From a virus: a stretch of 20,102 nucleotides of DNA. The notes below the pieces were generated by a model, which did no database searches, was not told where the DNA came from, and was given only the letters and a program-made list of their open reading frames with translations. The stretch spans positions 1-20,102 of IMG/VR virus record IMGVR_UViG_3300046535_000020. One strand, given 5' to 3'. The first letter of the stretch is position 1; every line of letters begins with the position of its first letter. Positions 1 through 7,945 of this stretch are shown piece by piece. The position numbers were made by a program, and so were the translations under genes.

Positions 1-3000
1 CCGATCGCGAACGGGTGCAGTTTCTTGTACTCGCCGCTATCCTTGAGTGACGATGCGATGTCAGCCATCGATGCGCCCGAGTTGAGGAAGAATTGCAGTC
101 CAGCCGCATCTGCCGGACGCCCGAGCAGGCTTTGGTACATGCCCTGAATCGTAGCTTCCGGCGACATCGCAATCGACTGCGTAATCGTCCCGAGCGGCAC
201 ACCCGATGCAGCCTGCTGCTGCCAGTACGCGAGCCCTGCTGCATCGGGCGCGCGGCCCAGCGACTGGTGGTACTGGTCGCTGATGGCGGACGTTGCGGCT
301 ACTACCGGATTGGCTTTCGCTGCCATGATCGCGGTCTGGAACCCGGCCAGCGCCTGTTGAATGCTCAGGCCCGTCGTGTCGATGCCCTTCAACAGATCGA
401 CCTGCTTCTTCGCCGCGTCGAGCATGGCGTTGAGCGAGTCGAGTTGCTTCTGGTCGACCGACAGCGTGCTGTCTGCGAGGTCTCCGAGTTGTGACAGGTC
501 GTTTTTCGTGCTGTACAAATCGCGCAGGTAGTCCGCGTACGAGCCGAACTTGGTCGAGGCGTCTTGCGAGACTGTCGACAGCGCGTCCTTCAGCGAGTCA
601 GCGGTCGGCAGCGGACCACCGGCCTTGGCGATCGCCAGTGCTGCCTCGATCTGCGCTTGCGCCGCTGCGCGGTCGGTCAGGTCCGTGCTTGCCGCCTTCA
701 TGCCGGAGAGCGTCGACTTGATCGCATCCGACAGAGCCTTCTCCGCGTTGATGCGCGCAGTCAGGGCGTCGGTCGTTGGCTTCATCGTGTTTTGCAGCAC
801 AGTAAAGGCATTGTCGACGTCGCCCATGAGGCCAGAAGCCACGTCTTTTGCGGCCTGCATCGCGTCCTTCGCGGCCTGTACCGCGTCTTTCTCGGCCTGC
901 AGCGCCGACACCCGGTCGTACAGCGCCAGGTTGCTCGCATCAATGGTCGCGCGCTCCTTGTCGTGGAGCTGCGCTGACGTCAGCGTGAGCGCGTCAAGCT
1001 TGTCTTGCAGGCTCTTGCGCTCGTCGGCGATCTCCTGCTCGGACTTCGTCGTGTCCACGATGGCCGCATGCGTCGCTGCAAACGCGCTTTCCAGATTCAT
1101 CAGCGAGGCGTACGTCTGCTGGCCAGACGTCGTGGTCAGGTCCAGGCATGCCACGACGCTTGCGAACTGCTCGCGGGTCTGCACCCAGCCGAGGTTCATC
1201 GCACCCAACTGCTGCGACACGTACGCTGCCACCGGCGCCAGTTGTTGCCCCTTGGTCAGGAAGTTCTGCGCAAAGTCTGCCGTCTTCGACTGGAGATTGT
1301 CGATGCCGCCCATGAGGCTGATCAGGCCCTCGCGCGCGCCGACCGACTCGATGCCGACTGCGCCGAAGGTCTTACCGATCGACTGCAGAGATGCATCCAG
1401 CTTGGCGTAGTCGGTTGCGACCCGGGTCAGGGTTTGCAGGTAGCCTTCGCCGACCTTGGCAAACTGGCCGAGGCCATCAACAGCCCATTGCGCCATCTGG
1501 TCGCCGAGTTTCGAGAACACGGCTTCCAGGGCCTTCTGCTGGTCGTCGCCAGACAGGCCTTTCAGGGACACGTTGCCGATGTCGACCACGAAGCTGTTCA
1601 GCTTGGCAGTGAAATCGTCGCCGCACGCGCCCAGCAACGTGCTCGCCTGAGTGATCGAGTCCGCCAGGGACTTGATGACCGCGCCAAACTGTCGGTTGGC
1701 CTCGTCTCCGAGCGGAGTCGTCTGGACGCTGGTCTTGTCCTTGCCGAACCAGCCGCCGCTCGTCGTGATGTCGGCGTAGGTCTTGGCATTGACGCCGCCA
1801 GAGAGCACCGACGCAAGCGACGTTTTGTCGAGCGTGAAGCCAGAATCAGCGACGGACTGCTTGCCCCCCATGATCGAGGTGAAGATGTTTTGGAACACCG
1901 GGATCTTGCTGGCGATGTAGCCGACTACTGCGCCCACCGCAGTGCCAATCGGACCGAAGTAGGAGCCCACTTCAGCGCCCGTCATGCTCATGTCTGCCGC
2001 GCCGAGGTTTGTGGTGCCGTAGCCATGAGCAAGGTTGCCAACTTGAGGATTGCTGATGTTCGTGTTCTGCACGATCTGGGACGCGAAGCTGCCGATATTC
2101 GTCTGGATCGCCTGCAGCGACGTGAGCATGCCCGACAGGTAGTTAATCTGCGTGCTGCTGTTCGCTGCGGTGAGCTCGATGGATTTGCTGATCGAGTCGG
2201 ACTTGGCATTGCTGTCGCCGAGGATCGTGCCGGTGCCTTGGGAGGCTTGACGGGCGGCGGCCGATGGTGCGCTGCCGCCGCCTGAAACCGCCACGCCGAA
2301 GCCTGCAATCACGGCCGCCATTGCGGCAACACCGGCAAAGCCGCCCCAGCCAGACTGCGCGAAGAATTGCGCAGCACCCGCCGCCATCGCGGGTGCAATC
2401 GACGCAAGGTTCATCGCCAGTTCCGCCGCGTGCATCACTTCGGACGCGGTCTGCAGGGCCTTGTAGCCGCGCGAGCCCGTATCGAAGAAGCCGGCGGCGG
2501 CACCGGCCATGTTGGCGTAGCTGTTGAGCGACTCCTTCGTATTCCGATCATTGAGCTTGTTGATGTCGTCCAGGTACTGCGCGTGAGTCAAGTTCCCTTT
2601 TGCGTAGGCGATATCAGCGTTTTTCCTAGCCTCGTCGTTCCTCGCCTGCTGCGCACCATAGGTTTGCATCACCCTGACCAAGTCCATGAGCGAGCGGCTT
2701 GCGCTGTCGAACGATCCCTTAAGGGCATTCCCGAAGTTCTGAGCCTTGGTCGGGTCCAAGTACTTGTCGAGATCGGCGGCGGCTTTGACAGCCGCCTCCT
2801 TCCCTGCGTTTTCGGTCTGAGATTGGCCCAGGGCTTGAATCTTTTCGATGTCCGCCTTCGCCTGCGCCAGCCACGCGGTATAGATCGTGCGCGCATTGTC
2901 CAGTGTCTTGTCGCTCGGGTCGAGGCCGCTGAGCATCTGCTCGGTTGCGTCTACCTGGCCCTGCAGCTCGACTGCCTTCTGCTGCTGCTGAGCAGCACGC

Positions 3001-5369
3001 AGCGCATCAACTTGCTCCCTGGTATTTCCGATTTCGAGCCCGTGCTGATGCTCCTTTTCGATCTGAGCGTCCAAGGATTTTAGTTCCGCATCTCCGGCCT
3101 TGCTAAGCGCGGCCAAGTAATCGTCCATCGGCTTCTTGTCATCGATGTCGATCTGCGCCGCGCCATTGGCTTCGATCTGGTCGCGTTCGATCTTCAGCAG
3201 GTTCAGCTTGTCGAGATGCGCCCGTCGCTCGACATCCGTCAGCCCGGACACGTGCGCCATGCGGAGCTCGTAGTTCTGCTTTTCCTCGTTGGCCTCCAGC
3301 GCGTTGCGCGTCATCTGGATGTCGAACTGCTCCTTGGTGAAGTTGCCGAGCTTGTATTGGTTGTTGATGTCGTCGGCTACGCCTTTCAGCTTCACGAGTG
3401 CGAGCTGGTCCTGGTCGGTGATCTGCTGTTGAGTGAGTTGGCGGGCCTCTTGCCCAATGGAGCGCTGGATGGATTCGATCTGCTTGTCAAGTTCCAGCTT
3501 GCGCGCCTCGACTGCTGGCGTATTCGCCGCCCCATCGAGCATGTCGCGCTCCTGTTGCAGCAGGTTGATGCGATGGAGCTGGCCTTGATTGAGCGACTCG
3601 GTGATCTTGTTCTGCTTATCAGCGGCGGCAGCAGCTGCAGTTGCCGAGGCTTGCGCGGCATCCTGCTCGGCCTTGTGTCCCGCGATCAGATCAGCGATGT
3701 ACTGTTTCTGCTTGGCGATCTGCTTGTCCAACTCCTTGTCGCCGCCGAAGAGGTTGGGTGCGCCCTGCATCTGATCGAGCGCCGCCTGAGCGGCTTGCAA
3801 CTGGGCCTGAAAAGGCGTGGCCGTGCCAGACATGTGCTCCTTGATGATGCCCCACGCCGTTGACATCGCATTGGCGAAGTCATGCCATGCTCCAGCCAGG
3901 CCGCCCACCTCCTTGGCCTGAACCGCCAAGTGCCCCGCCAGGACCTCTGCCAGCGTGATCTGGGCCTGCTGATGCTGGCCGGAGTCATCGAGCGCGCGGA
4001 TGTACTCGACGTTTTCGGCGGTCAGCAGGTGCATGGACTTCATTAGCTCTTCCGCGCCCTGCTTCGGGTCACTGAACAACTGGATCAGTTTCGGCGTGAT
4101 TTCCTCGACGCTTTGACCAGTCTGCTGCGCATAGTTTCCGGCGAGCAGAGCAATCTTCTCCAACGCCTGGCCGCCGATCTGGCCAGACGCAACGAAGCTC
4201 GTCACCATTTCCCGCGCAGCGCCACTCGTCATCTTGCCTGCGGCGCCAATCCGAGCAGCGAGCTCGTTGATGGAATCGACGGTCTGGCCGGCATAGTTGC
4301 TCGTCAGGCCGATGGCGGTGTTCATCGCCAAGAAGTCCTGTCGGCCCTGGTAAGCAGCGGCGGCGGCGAGCGCGAGCGGCCCGACGACCATGGTCGCGCC
4401 AAAAGCGATCGCACCAAATGTGCCGGCGAGTTCTTCCATCATCGCGCCGAGACCGCCTGCGCGGCTCGTCAGCACCATCAGTGAGCCAGGAATGCGCGAG
4501 AAGTTGCCTGCAACGACTTCGTGACCAAGCACCATCAGCTCGCGGGTCGCGCCAGCCGTGGCGAAGCCGCTTTTCTTCGCGCCGTCCTCGATCTTGCCAA
4601 ACCCTTCGACGCCGGCCTTCGCCATCAAACCCTGCGTCTTGGTGATCTCCTCCTCGAGACCTTGAAACGCCTTCATGGCTGCCGGATCTACGGAGTCGCC
4701 CATTTCCCTGCGCAACAGGGCCATATCCGATTGCAGCGAGCGCAGCTTCGTCCCGAGCGGGTCGTACTTGTTCAGGATGGCTTGCGTTTGCGCCGACAGT
4801 TCGCCCGTTCCCGCTGCGGCGGCACGCATGGCAGCAGTCGTGGCCGACATATTCAAGTTCTGCGCTCGGACGGTTTCCGCCACGCTGCCGGTCACGGAGC
4901 CAAGGCGTGCCTGGGCCGTTGCGAACCCGTTTGACGCCATCGCAGCATCGTTCATGGCAGCGGCTTCCGCCACAGAGGCGGCAACCATGTCGCGAATGCG
5001 TGCCGTAGCCGAGGCTTCCGATGCTGCAACCTGGTCATTGAAGCCAGCTTGCGCCGCCTTCATCGAGTTCAAGCGCTCGACCAGCGCTGCAGCTTGGTCG
5101 CCGACGCCGAGCAGTCCAGCCTTATAGATCTTGAGCTCGTCCGCGCCCATGCCGAAGGTCTTGATCTCCTCTTGAAGCGAGGCGATCATGCGGCGGCCGG
5201 CGTCATTGCGCGCCGAGGTTGCCTCGGTGATGCCCTGCAGGCCGTTGACGATGTCCTTCGTGGCTTTTCCGGTGATTGCTTGCGCCTCGCGCATATCAAT
5301 CGCGAGCTGGTCGACGTCGCCGGAAACGGAAACGACCAAACGGCCTACGGTTACGGCGCCACCACTCAT
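1..5369 (-). CDS. Tape measure protein, TMP_2-like (3' end outside window)
   Basis: The tape measure protein fills the tail tube, sets tail length and takes part in DNA delivery. One frame stays open from an ATG at 5369, preceded by a GGAG ribosome site, to base 1: 1789 whole codons, no stop, so the C-terminus lies outside. Residues about 160-450 look like the prophage tail-length tape measure family, with TRELMVLGHEVVAGNFSRIP followed by a hydrophobic stretch (about 314-337). Residues about 530-900 are charged, Gln/Ala/Lys-rich and probably coiled coil. Further hydrophobic segments lie near 985-1032 and 1134-1157, a common arrangement in tape measures thought to contact the host membrane. 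Near the edge (about 1695-1785) are two DUF4214-like repeats. The length and its place after the tail chaperone fit a siphovirus. The family is read from memory of motifs, but the role is secure. Confidence 0.93.
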   Translation of the reverse strand, partial: MSGGAVTVGRLVVSVSGDVDQLAIDMREAQAITGKATKDIVNGLQGITEATSARNDAGRRMIASLQEEIKTFGMGADELKIYKAGLLGVGDQAAALVERLNSMKAAQAGFNDQVAASEASATARIRDMVAASVAEAAAMNDAAMASNGFATAQARLGSVTGSVAETVRAQNLNMSATTAAMRAAAAGTGELSAQTQAILNKYDPLGTKLRSLQSDMALLRREMGDSVDPAAMKAFQGLEEEITKTQGLMAKAGVEGFGKIEDGAKKSGFATAGATRELMVLGHEVVAGNFSRIPGSLMVLTSRAGGLGAMMEELAGTFGAIAFGATMVVGPLALAAAAAYQGRQDFLAMNTAIGLTSNYAGQTVDSINELAARIGAAGKMTSGAAREMVTSFVASGQIGGQALEKIALLAGNYAQQTGQSVEEITPKLIQLFSDPKQGAEELMKSMHLLTAENVEYIRALDDSGQHQQAQITLAEVLAGHLAVQAKEVGGLAGAWHDFANAMSTAWGIIKEHMSGTATPFQAQLQAAQAALDQMQGAPNLFGGDKELDKQIAKQKQYIADLIAGHKAEQDAAQASATAAAAAADKQNKITESLNQGQLHRINLLQQERDMLDGAANTPAVEARKLELDKQIESIQRSIGQEARQLTQQQITDQDQLALVKLKGVADDINNQYKLGNFTKEQFDIQMTRNALEANEEKQNYELRMAHVSGLTDVERRAHLDKLNLLKIERDQIEANGAAQIDIDDKKPMDDYLAALSKAGDAELKSLDAQIEKEHQHGLEIGNTREQVDALRAAQQQQKAVELQGQVDATEQMLSGLDPSDKTLDNARTIYTAWLAQAKADIEKIQALGQSQTENAGKEAAVKAAADLDKYLDPTKAQNFGNALKGSFDSASRSLMDLVRVMQTYGAQQARNDEARKNADIAYAKGNLTHAQYLDDINKLNDRNTKESLNSYANMAGAAAGFFDTGSRGYKALQTASEVMHAAELAMNLASIAPAMAAGAAQFFAQSGWGGFAGVAAMAAVIAGFGVAVSGGGSAPSAAARQASQGTGTILGDSNAKSDSISKSIELTAANSSTQINYLSGMLTSLQAIQTNIGSFASQIVQNTNISNPQVGNLAHGYGTTNLGAADMSMTGAEVGSYFGPIGTAVGAVVGYIASKIPVFQNIFTSIMGGKQSVADSGFTLDKTSLASVLSGGVNAKTYADITTSGGWFGKDKTSVQTTPLGDEANRQFGAVIKSLADSITQASTLLGACGDDFTAKLNSFVVDIGNVSLKGLSGDDQQKALEAVFSKLGDQMAQWAVDGLGQFAKVGEGYLQTLTRVATDYAKLDASLQSIGKTFGAVGIESVGAREGLISLMGGIDNLQSKTADFAQNFLTKGQQLAPVAAYVSQQLGAMNLGWVQTREQFASVVACLDLTTTSGQQTYASLMNLESAFAATHAAIVDTTKSEQEIADERKSLQDKLDALTLTSAQLHDKERATIDASNLALYDRVSALQAEKDAVQAAKDAMQAAKDVASGLMGDVDNAFTVLQNTMKPTTDALTARINAEKALSDAIKSTLSGMKAASTDLTDRAAAQAQIEAALAIAKAGGPLPTADSLKDALSTVSQDASTKFGSYADYLRDLYSTKNDLSQLGDLADSTLSVDQKQLDSLNAMLDAAKKQVDLLKGIDTTGLSIQQALAGFQTAIMAAKANPVVAATSAISDQYHQSLGRAPDAAGLAYWQQQAASGVPLGTITQSIAMSPEATIQGMYQSLLGRPADAAGLQFFLNSGASMADIASSLKDSGEYKKLHPFAI

Positions 5370-5446: not shown

Positions 5447-5842
5447 TCAACTCTTGTTCGTTGGCGGAGGGGCTGGTTCAGTGCAGGCGGCTGTGTACCG
5501 TTGCGCCGTTTCCAACCTGCCATCCTTGGCTATATCTACATAATCACCAACCGTGAGGAATGGCCTGTAGCCGACATATCCGCCGAAGCTGTTCTTGGCA
5601 TTTACCTCGCCGCATACAGTCAATCCGTCCTGAGCGACACTGACGTTTCTAAAGTCTGCCGACTCCGGATCTTTCAGTCGCCCCTTTACGACATCTTCTG
5701 CCTTGCTGATCATCTGGGAATTGTGATGCCAAGGCCGCGCGTCCGACTCAGATCCTGGGTTGACCGACCAGAGCGTGATGGCCCCCGCAAACACCACGGG
5801 AATCGCCCCGAGTAGCGCCATCTCTCGCCGTGCTATGCTCAT
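5447..5842 (-). CDS. Small membrane-anchored or exported protein, probable phage cargo (moron) gene
   Basis: This 131-aa protein starts at an ATG preceded by a GGGGGC ribosome site. Residues 9-27 form one hydrophobic segment after a basic N-terminus, predicting an inner-membrane anchor or uncleaved signal with the rest outside. The body contains RLKDPESADFRNV (55-67) and VCGEVNAKNSFGGYVGYRPF (76-95), a motif pair I recall from hypothetical proteins of proteobacterial chromosomes and prophages. Cys77 and Cys120 could form a disulfide. It interrupts the usual chaperone-to-tape-measure order, and two terminators follow it. A possible -10 element (GATAAT, 5856-5861) lies just upstream, but no good -35 is visible. 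By eye its GC content is lower than that of its neighbours. It is probably not a virion assembly factor; a role in altering the lysogen, such as superinfection exclusion, is inference only. Confidence 0.75.
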   Translation of the reverse strand: MSIARREMALLGAIPVVFAGAITLWSVNPGSESDARPWHHNSQMISKAEDVVKGRLKDPESADFRNVSVAQDGLTVCGEVNAKNSFGGYVGYRPFLTVGDYVDIAKDGRLETAQRYTAACTEPAPPPTNKS

Positions 5843-5888: not shown

Positions 5889-6664
5889 TCACGCCTTGGT
5901 CAATACATCAAGGGCTGACGACTCCATGACCTTGAGCCCTTGAAAGACCTCGGCGCGTCGCTTCTTTGGAACCTGCAGACCTTCGTAGACAACTGGCAGG
6001 GCCGCGTAGTCGAATCCGGCTCGGCGCGATTCCATGCCACCCGTCCATCTCCACTGGGTCGTCATGGCCAGGAACACTTCGAGAATCAGCCAGTTTTCTG
6101 GCCATACCTCGAAATATTCCGGCTCGTCGTTCGTGCCAAGCCAAGCGTCGATGGCATCGGAGGCGATACCGAAGCCTTCGAGGTCCGCGCGTGCCTCGCT
6201 ACCGTCATCCTTGCCACCGCGCGCCCAGTACGCGGCGGCATCCTTCAGTTTTTTGCTTTTGCGCCCGCGTTGATCTCGGAGACGGCCACGTTGATGGCGC
6301 GGAGCACGCTGGTGCCTCGGGTGCCACGCGCGGCGGCGCGCAGGGTCTCGCGGTTGAAGTCCAGCGGCTGATCATCTTCGCCAACGACACCCTTCCAGCC
6401 GGTCATGACCTGCATGATGCGGTCGATCATGCCGTCCTTCCAGGCGCTGGCCAGCACGGTCACGTCCTGTTCACCGGAGACCTGATCGGCTTGCGCCTGA
6501 GCGGCTTTCTGCGCCTCGAGTTCGAACGCATCGCGCTCGTCATCGGTCTGCAATTTGAACAGACCGGTGAACTCGTATTTCTGGGTCTTGCCGCCATCGA
6601 CGGCGACTTCGACCTTGACCGGCCAGGAGATGATTTTCTTTTCTTCGGATTGAATCTTGAACAT
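5889..6664 (-). CDS. Tail assembly chaperone, long frameshifted form (gpGT-like fusion)
   Basis: This is the predicted -1 frameshift product of the tail chaperone gene. Reading begins at ATG 6664, covers all 139 codons of the short form, slips back one base at A AAA AAC (6254-6248), and continues from CTG at 6248 to a TGA at 5889, giving about 258 aa. The extra 119 residues begin LKDAAAYWARGG, contain FEVWPENWLILEVFLAMTTQ and GFDYAALPVVYEGL, and resemble DUF1799, the second half of lambda-like chaperones. No Shine-Dalgarno-led start exists for this half; an internal ATG at 6077 would cut the domain in two. In lambda the long form binds both tape measure and tail tube protein and is absent from the virion. 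Its position between tail tube and tape measure genes is exactly as expected. Confidence 0.88.
6213..6254 (-). promoter_or_regulatory. Programmed -1 ribosomal frameshift signal
   Basis: On the minus strand the zero-frame codons GCA AAA AAC TGA contain the heptamer A AAA AAC (6254-6248), a canonical X XXY YYZ slip site directly before the stop. After an 8-nt spacer (6247-6240) comes a 9-bp stem: GCCGCCGCG (6239-6231) pairs with CGCGGTGGC (6221-6213), one G-U, around a 9-nt loop. Slip site, spacing and stem all match known -1 frameshift signals, and the shifted frame reads 119 sensible residues. Confidence 0.93.
6245..6664 (-). CDS. Tail assembly chaperone, short form (gpG-like)
   Basis: This 139-aa cytosolic chaperone coats the tape measure during tail assembly; it is made in excess over the frameshifted form. 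It opens with MFKIQSEEKKIISWPVKVEV, a beta-rich start typical of this family, then an Ala/Glu/Gln-rich helix (about 45-65). The C-terminal region is helical and ends in a Lys/Ala tail encoded by A-rich codons that double as the slippery site. A strong AAGGA ribosome site sits 6 bases before the ATG, and a stem-loop lies immediately before that site. The acidic and amphipathic composition, the size and the position after the tail tube gene support the call even though primary sequence in this family is weakly conserved. Confidence 0.88.
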   Translation of the reverse strand: MFKIQSEEKKIISWPVKVEVAVDGGKTQKYEFTGLFKLQTDDERDAFELEAQKAAQAQADQVSGEQDVTVLASAWKDGMIDRIMQVMTGWKGVVGEDDQPLDFNRETLRAAARGTRGTSVLRAINVAVSEINAGAKAKN

Positions 6665-6766: not shown

Positions 6767-7945
6767 TTACATGAAGCAGAGGGTCAGTTCGTCGTTGCCG
6801 CTGGCCGGCACGAAGGTTTGTTTCATGGTCAGCATGGTGATGCCGTCCTTGTCCGCATAAGCCGGGGATGCCAACTGCTGCTGCGGCGCGTCGATCTTGA
6901 CTTTGTTGCCAGCCACAGTGCCGTGCGTGACCGAGAAAACGCCGAGCGTGACGTTCTTGATGAGGGTCCACCAGTCTTTCGCGACCGTTGCGCCACCAGT
7001 GGAGACGGGGGTTGCCTCGATGGTGATCGAGCCGGACGGCTGGCGGTCGGTCAGCACAACGTTGTCAGCGCCGCCGGGCAGCGAGCGGAACGTGGTGGCA
7101 TTGGCCAGGTCGAAGCTGAAGTCCGCGCAGACCGCGCCGAGGAAGCCGGACACGTTCAGGTTCGTGGTGTTGATGCCGTTGATCGCCAGCGGCTGCTGGA
7201 ACTGCGTTAGCGTGACCGCCGGAATCGTCGCATCGGACGGCGTGGTAAACAGGCCGGTGAAGGTGAACGTGAGCATAGGGATGCCCTGCGCCGATGCCTT
7301 CAGCGCCACCGAACCACGGGCGCCGGTCATCTTGTGCAGGATGCTGTCGACGTAGCAGTAGAACGTCACCGATTCGAGGTTGCTCGACACCGGCTTGTAG
7401 ACGACCTGCGCCGGGATCGAAATGACGCTGGTGGCGTCGAGCGGAGTGCCGAGCGCGCTGGTGAAGGTCGCGACCTTGGTTGCGCCAACGTAGCTGGCGA
7501 TCACGGCGCTCTGGCCGCTGCCAGTGCCGCCGGTCACGTACACGGTCATACCAGAATAGGTGCCATCCGACGAGGAGGCGCTTGCGGGCAGCGTGCCCGA
7601 GGTGGCCGAGCCCGCCGTCAGCGTGCCGGTAACGGGGGCCGCGAGCGTGGTGGCCGACAGAGCGCAACCGCGGAGCAGTTCGTCGTACGCCGGCGCGGTG
7701 CCCGCGGTGCCCGAGCCAGCCAGCTCGATGTCGAACGAGACCTTGGCGTAGATTGCGGCCAGGACGCTGGGGTTGTTGCCCATGTACGCCTTGATATTCT
7801 GGCGCTGGACGACCGTCATCTCCATGGGGCTGACGGTCAGGTTACTCATCAGCAGGGCATCGCTGCCGGCGGTCGGGGTTGGATCGACGCCGTAAGTGGT
7901 TTCGATCTTCGACAGGATGGCACGCTTGCGGGTCAAAAAGCTCAT
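6767..7945 (-). CDS. Major tail (tail tube) protein with an inserted beta domain
   Basis: This 392-aa protein is predicted to polymerise into the non-contractile tail tube. The start MSFLTRKRAILSKIETTYGV (1-20) and the stretches VYKPVSSNLESVTFYCYVD (182-200) and HKMTGARGSVALKA (about 204-217) match what I recall of the phage tail tube family that includes Phage_tube_2. A GGAG ribosome site lies 6 bases before the ATG, two bases after the preceding stop. Residues about 104-177 look like an insertion: a Gly/Ser/Thr-rich beta domain containing DGTYSGMTVYVTGGTGSGQS, a pattern seen in many phage surface proteins. The uninterrupted family would join LLRGCALSAT directly to VVYKPVSS. The inserted domain probably decorates the outside of the tail. 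The gene is followed by the chaperone genes, as in lambda-like tails. Confidence 0.9.
   Translation of the reverse strand: MSFLTRKRAILSKIETTYGVDPTPTAGSDALLMSNLTVSPMEMTVVQRQNIKAYMGNNPSVLAAIYAKVSFDIELAGSGTAGTAPAYDELLRGCALSATTLAAPVTGTLTAGSATSGTLPASASSSDGTYSGMTVYVTGGTGSGQSAVIASYVGATKVATFTSALGTPLDATSVISIPAQVVYKPVSSNLESVTFYCYVDSILHKMTGARGSVALKASAQGIPMLTFTFTGLFTTPSDATIPAVTLTQFQQPLAINGINTTNLNVSGFLGAVCADFSFDLANATTFRSLPGGADNVVLTDRQPSGSITIEATPVSTGGATVAKDWWTLIKNVTLGVFSVTHGTVAGNKVKIDAPQQQLASPAYADKDGITMLTMKQTFVPASGNDELTLCFM

What the first reader, a model, noticed from the sequence alone, without database searches (positions are those of the whole stretch)
6213..6254. Complete -1 frameshift signal in the tail chaperone gene, recovering a full second domain
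The minus strand reads GCA AAA AAC TGA: a textbook A AAA AAC slip site right before the stop, an 8-nt spacer and a 9-bp GC-rich stem with a 9-nt loop. Slipping back one base opens 119 further codons with a DUF1799-like sequence (FEVWPENWLILEVFLAMTTQ). Simple gene calling sees only a 62-codon fragment from an internal ATG. Tail chaperone frameshifting is known in lambda-like phages; this signal looks very well formed and may be efficient.
Basis: partly seen in the sequence, partly recalled or inferred. Interest (0 to 1): 0.72.

Follow-up and report, generated by a model that had tools for sequence, protein, structure and literature searches.

The report
Phage tail-chaperone -1 frameshift site
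A bacterial virus very probably makes a short and a long version of its tail-building helper protein from one gene by letting a few ribosomes slip back one base; this trick is well known in tailed phages, and this is a clear, previously unlabelled example backed by strong conservation in related phages.

Summary
On the minus strand a 139-codon gene (6664..6245) ends GCA AAA AAC TGA. The A AAA AAC heptamer lies at 6254-6248, and a GC-rich hairpin follows at 6240-6212. The -1 frame gives 119 further codons matching Pfam DUF1799 (E 1.5e-19). The gene lies between the tail-tube-like gene and the tape-measure gene, as lambda G/GT does.

Comparative evidence is much stronger than one sequence allows. 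All 92 related loci carry AAAAAAC or GGGAAAC in register at this junction; 54 of 56 non-redundant ones have the zero-frame stop immediately after it. The hairpin is kept by synonymous constraint in close relatives and by compensatory changes in distant ones.

Best explanation: programmed -1 ribosomal frameshifting makes a G-like chaperone and a scarcer 258-aa G-T fusion, with DUF1799 as the T domain. The frameshift is inferred, not shown.

Two reader details fail. The 62-codon ORF starts with GTG, not ATG. "May be efficient" has no support: AAAAAAC is reported as a low-efficiency heptamer in E. coli.

New member of a known kind: the same heptamers are published for phages Loki, phiCbK and Colossus. 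The modest addition is that the signal looks near-universal in DUF1799 phages and is rarely annotated.

The parts
6245..6664 (-). G-like tail assembly chaperone ORF, 139 aa, ends ...KAKN-stop; AAGGA upstream of the ATG
   Evidence: phrog_569 (tail) E 6.6e-11 and phrog_313 (tail assembly chaperone) E 0.0039; all 31 aligned relatives match phrog_569, 10 match Phage_TAC_4 and 9 match phrog_313
6248..6254 (-). slippery heptamer A AAA AAC, zero-frame codons AAA AAC, -1 frame codons AAA AAA
   Evidence: in-register AAAAAAC or GGGAAAC in 92 of 92 related loci
6245..6247 (-). zero-frame stop TGA directly after the heptamer
   Evidence: stop at this exact place in 54 of 56 non-redundant relatives
6241..6247 (-). 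7-nt spacer (8 nt if the outer U-A pair is not formed); includes the stop
   Evidence: 4-fold sites invariant in close relatives; compensatory changes
5889..6248 (-). T-like -1 frame extension, 119 codons plus stop; reached only after the slip
   Evidence: no ATG/GTG/TTG in this frame between 6371 and 6077
5907..6119 (-). DUF1799 (PF08809) match within the extension
   Evidence: E 1.5e-19, 70.4 bits, cut-off 26; 31 of 31 aligned relatives match
6767..7945 (-). upstream neighbour: tail-tube-like protein, 392 aa
   Evidence: phrog_290 (tail, 'minor tail protein') E 8.3e-25
3..5369 (-). downstream neighbour: tape measure protein, runs off the window
   Evidence: PF06791 TMP_2 E 3.3e-29

Best explanation
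The element is a programmed -1 ribosomal frameshift signal in a phage tail assembly chaperone gene of the lambda G/GT type. Most ribosomes stop at TGA 6247-6245 and release the 139-aa G-like protein. A minority pause against the hairpin at 6240-6212 with Lys and Asn tRNAs on AAA AAC, slip back to AAA AAA, and continue through 119 codons. This gives a 258-aa G-T fusion whose C-terminal part is DUF1799. By analogy with lambda, many copies of G and a few of G-T would coat the tape measure protein, and the T (DUF1799) part would recruit tail-tube subunits. Shown here: the sequence elements, their conservation, the domain match and the synteny. Inferred: the slip itself, its rate, and the binding roles.
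For: (1) Anatomy: heptamer, spacer, hairpin and open -1 frame. (2) DUF1799 matches in the shifted frame. (3) 92 of 92 loci found by the T-domain protein carry AAAAAAC or GGGAAAC in register; among 56 non-redundant ones 45 are AAAAAAC and 11 GGGAAAC, and 54 have a stop directly after it. (4) In 12 close sequences, 6 of 7 four-fold sites in the stem codons are invariant against 1 of 10 elsewhere (Fisher p 0.004); the seventh varies only C/T, a G-C to G-U change. (5) Two gapless alignments of more distant relatives show covariation above all 500 shuffles and above every slid register. (6) Half of the 56 relatives have a stem of 9 or more contiguous pairs at this place against 1.5% of control windows. 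(7) The slip-to-GTG region evolves as coding in the T frame: 41 of 45 third positions vary against 20 and 22 of 45. (8) Gene order tail tube, G, T, tape measure. (9) The homologous gene of Stenotrophomonas phage Silvanus is annotated as a two-piece joined frameshift product.
Against: No expression data. In E. coli both heptamer types are low-efficiency (PMC4066793). The window's own G protein is below the Pfam cut-off for Phage_TAC_4 (E 0.067). The predicted G fold resembles HK97 chaperone 2OB9 only weakly (Z 4.3, rank 11, though 98 residues align). The hairpin z-score on this one sequence is modest. One cultured relative, Microcystis phage vB_MaeS-yong1, has no in-register heptamer.
Confidence: 0.95

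Rival explanations
1. RNA polymerase slippage on the A run, not ribosome slippage, makes mRNAs with an altered number of As and so the fusion protein.
For: The site is a run of six As; some relatives have seven.
Against: 11 of 56 non-redundant relatives have GGGAAAC, which has no long homopolymer, at the same place and register. The conserved hairpin at ribosomal spacing has no clear role in polymerase slippage. Six As is short for transcriptional slippage (own knowledge).
Confidence: 0.02
2. The DUF1799 frame is a separate gene with its own start; the overlap with the chaperone gene is accidental.
For: Gene callers and several GenBank records list a separate downstream ORF; VarioGold is published with separate chaperone and DUF1799 genes (PMC9658991). 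10 of 56 relatives have a start with an SD-like motif between slip site and core motif.
Against: In the window the first start in frame, GTG 6077, lies inside DUF1799 and would remove the FEVWPENW core. 17 of 56 relatives have no ATG/GTG/TTG before the core. It does not explain the in-register heptamer in every locus or the covarying hairpin.
Confidence: 0.03
3. Sequencing error or a decayed gene: the frame break is an artefact.
For: A-runs are common error sites.
Against: The same break recurs in 92 contigs and in 10 of 11 cultured phages examined, and both frames are under coding constraint.
Confidence: 0.005

Closest known systems
Lambda G/GT tail assembly chaperone frameshift (Levin 1993; Xu 2004; reviewed in PMC5009743)
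   Same: -1 frameshift near the end of the gene between tail tube and tape measure; short G and rarer G-T fusion (about 30:1 in lambda).
   Different: Other T-domain family here (DUF1799); AAC heptamer followed at once by the stop; a conserved hairpin. That lambda's heptamer is GGGAAAG is own knowledge.
Acinetobacter phage vB_AbaS_Loki gp12-gp13 (PMC5313236)
   Different: The passages read mention no hairpin, and DUF1799 is not named in the paper. A small gene also lies between its chaperones and tape measure, but of another family.
Caulobacter phage phiCbK group (PMC3556154)
   Same: AAAAAAC in phiCbK and GGGAAAC in Colossus, the same two heptamers found across the relatives here.
   Different: Large prolate phages; homology to this protein was not tested.
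T1-like and related DUF1799 chaperones: Silvanus, Stevie, Hanrivervirus phages
   Same: Homologous DUF1799 protein in Silvanus and Henu8; Silvanus is annotated as a joined frameshift product, Stevie is described with a conserved translational frameshift; Henu8 has AAAAAAC TAA plus a hairpin.
   Different: About 30-38% identity in the T domain, and different hairpin sequences.

Membership tests
Phage tail assembly chaperone G/GT with programmed -1 frameshift | Gene lies between the tail tube gene and the tape measure gene | tested here: met
   tail-tube-like phrog_290 upstream, TMP_2 downstream; one small ORF intervenes at 5447-5842
Phage tail assembly chaperone G/GT with programmed -1 frameshift | X XXY YYZ heptamer in the right register at the overlap of G and the -1 frame | tested here: met
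Phage tail assembly chaperone G/GT with programmed -1 frameshift | G protein belongs to a known tail chaperone family | tested here: met
   PHROG tail families; 10 of 31 homologs match Phage_TAC_4 and 9 match phrog_313; the window's own Pfam score is below cut-off
Phage tail assembly chaperone G/GT with programmed -1 frameshift | G fold like HK97 tail assembly chaperone (2OB9) | tested here: inconclusive
   Z 4.3, rmsd 4.5, 98 residues aligned, rank 11
Phage tail assembly chaperone G/GT with programmed -1 frameshift | Both G and G-T proteins are made, G-T as the minor product | not testable with these tools
   needs reporter assay or proteomics
DUF1799 (PF08809) | Score above Pfam gathering cut-off | tested here: met
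   70.4 bits against a cut-off of 26
Stem-loop-stimulated -1 frameshift site | Stable hairpin 5-9 nt after the heptamer, kept by selection | tested here: met
Stem-loop-stimulated -1 frameshift site | The hairpin raises the slip rate | not testable with these tools
   needs stem-breaking and stem-restoring mutants in a reporter

The most novel reading that the evidence does not exclude
The DUF1799 phages use a distinct, conserved design: only the low-shift AAC heptamers (AAAAAAC, GGGAAAC), a stop codon placed directly after the heptamer, and a covarying hairpin that covers the first codons of the T domain. The stop codon may take part in setting the slip rate (termination-coupled frameshifting) and not merely end the G protein.
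Probability: 0.12. Interest if true: 0.45.

Novelty: new member of a known kind. Interest (0 to 1): 0.25.

Why it matters
It assigns a role to the DUF1799 'unknown function' family: in these phages it is very probably the T domain of the tail assembly chaperone, normally reached by a -1 frameshift. Of twelve cultured-phage records read, only one (Silvanus) joins the two halves; the others list them as separate genes or call only one half. A simple rule (AAAAAAC or GGGAAAC plus stop plus hairpin before DUF1799) would correct annotation. The pairing of low-shift heptamers with a strong hairpin gives a convenient set of natural variants for testing how phages tune the G:GT ratio.

Tried and rejected
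Rfam found nothing in the window. PDB sequence profiles of G and T gave only chance-like hits (ribosomal L20 at E 0.006 for T). Foldseek of both predicted models found nothing significant, and VIA-align listed HK97 chaperone 2OB9 only at rank 11, Z 4.3. NCBIfam had no match. Folding 141 nt instead of 48 nt gives competing structures and a weaker z-score of -1.45, so single-sequence folding is weak evidence; the comparative tests carry the claim. No SD-like motif was seen by eye in the 20 nt before the heptamer. An independent T start, transcriptional slippage and sequencing error were considered and rejected as given under rivals. The G-T fusion was not folded: a -1 join is not letter-for-letter readable from the window, so G and T were predicted apart (pLDDT 84.9 and 85.5). 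Xu 2013 and 2014 on lambda are not held in the library.

Full report
What was checked. The minus strand was read directly. The zero-frame ORF 6664..6245 encodes 139 aa and ends GCA AAA AAC TGA. The heptamer A AAA AAC is at 6254-6248 and the stop at 6247-6245. The -1 frame continues from CTG at 6248 for 119 codons to a TGA at 5891-5889. One detail is wrong: the 62-codon ORF starts with GTG at 6077, and the first in-frame ATG is at 6065.

Chance. AAAAAAC by itself means little: two occur in the window and about one is expected. The 48-nt fold is better than most shuffles but not extreme (z -2.17). A 36-nt hairpin as stable as this is in the top 0.11% of positions on the strand. The decisive test is comparative.

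Related sequences. A search with the T-frame protein gave 80 viral contigs and 12 genome contigs. In every one of the 92, the T frame contains AAAAAAC or GGGAAAC in the correct register at the end of an upstream ORF. After removal of near-duplicates 56 sequences remain (the window included): 45 AAAAAAC and 11 GGGAAAC; the next codon is TGA in 38, TAA in 10, TAG in 6 and not a stop in 2. Among 11 cultured phages, 10 show the same arrangement; Microcystis phage vB_MaeS-yong1 does not. The search patterns did not include the slip codons, so this is not selection by the search.

The hairpin is under selection. In 12 close sequences (the window and 11 relatives 60-69% identical to it in T) the stem is almost letter-for-letter conserved, including degenerate third positions: 6 of 7 four-fold sites in the stem are invariant against 1 of 10 elsewhere in T (Fisher p 0.004). 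The one varying site changes only C to T, which keeps a G-U pair. In more distant relatives the stem sequence changes but pairing is kept. On two gapless alignments (21 and 15 sequences) the covariation score is 0.219 and 0.339, with 0 of 500 shuffles as high and all slid registers lower. The register of each group was chosen by best pairing, so the percentage paired is biased upward; the both-sides changes (for example C-G to G-C at columns 21-34 and 22-33 of A2) are less affected. Half of the 56 sequences have 9 or more contiguous pairs at this position against 1.5% of control windows from the same loci.

The extension is a real protein. It matches DUF1799 at E 1.5e-19, as do all 31 aligned sequences. 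Between the stem and GTG 6077, where no start codon exists, 41 of 45 third positions vary against 20 and 22 of 45 first and second positions, the pattern of a translated frame. An independent start at GTG 6077 would cut away the FEVWPENW core.

The G half. The window protein matches PHROG tail families (phrog_569 E 6.6e-11, phrog_313 'tail assembly chaperone' E 0.0039). Across 31 sequences all match phrog_569, 10 match Phage_TAC_4 and 9 match phrog_313. The predicted model (pLDDT 84.9) aligns over 98 residues to HK97 tail assembly chaperone 2OB9, but with a low Z of 4.3 at rank 11, so this is only suggestive. The neighbours are a tail-tube-like gene upstream and a tape measure gene downstream.

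Mechanism. The best reading is programmed -1 ribosomal frameshifting that gives many G and few G-T molecules, as in lambda, where G coats the tape measure protein and T recruits tail-tube subunits (reviewed in PMC5009743). Ribosome rather than polymerase slippage is favoured because GGGAAAC replaces AAAAAAC at the same place in 11 of 56 sequences and because the hairpin sits at the usual distance. The slip and its rate are inferred.

Efficiency. Sharma et al. 2014 name A_AAA_AAC and G_GGA_AAC as heptamers of low efficiency in E. coli (PMC4066793), and two HK97-like chaperone genes gave 6-7% (PMC3711429). A low-shift heptamer with a strong hairpin fits a low, set ratio. The host of this phage is not known; the nearest genome-contig relative is from Massilia (L082).

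Relation to what is known. AAAAAAC directly before the chaperone stop was described in phage Loki (PMC5313236), and AAAAAAC and GGGAAAC in the phiCbK group (PMC3556154). Stevie is described with the frameshift (PMC4319613) and Silvanus has it annotated as a joined gene. Only one paper in the library names DUF1799, and it lists the chaperone and DUF1799 as separate genes (VarioGold, PMC9658991). So this is a new member of a known kind; the added value is a near-universal signal in DUF1799 phages and evidence that its hairpin is selected.

Noticed in passing
window 5447-5842 (-): A 131-aa ORF (phrog_2320, unknown function, E 4.6e-22) is inserted between the chaperone and the tape measure gene. 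Of the close relatives only L012 has a recognisable copy (48% over 56 aa); L005 has a different ORF there, and most have none. It looks like a moron insertion spot.
   Followed up: partly
window 3-5369 (-): The tape measure protein carries a DUF4214 domain (PF13946, E 2.1e-10, aa 1699-1739) near its C-terminal end, an unexpected addition to a tape measure protein.
   Followed up: no
L096 1840-2080: Microcystis phage vB_MaeS-yong1 has the same gene pair but no in-register slippery heptamer at the junction; it may express the two halves separately or use another shift.
   Followed up: partly
L025 3001-3032; L029 942-973; L030 2998-3029: A few relatives have CTCC after the first six bases of the heptamer, so the zero frame runs on 8 more codons before its stop: natural variants lacking the adjacent stop.
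   Followed up: no
L104 1796-3240: In Pseudomonas phage PS-1 the record lists partition and anti-repressor genes directly after the DUF1799 gene, where the tape measure gene is expected.
   Followed up: no
L094, L097, L098, L100, L101, L102, L103, L104, L105: In these cultured-phage records the G and T halves are listed as two separate genes, with the T half often cut to an internal start, although the slip signal is present.
   Followed up: partly
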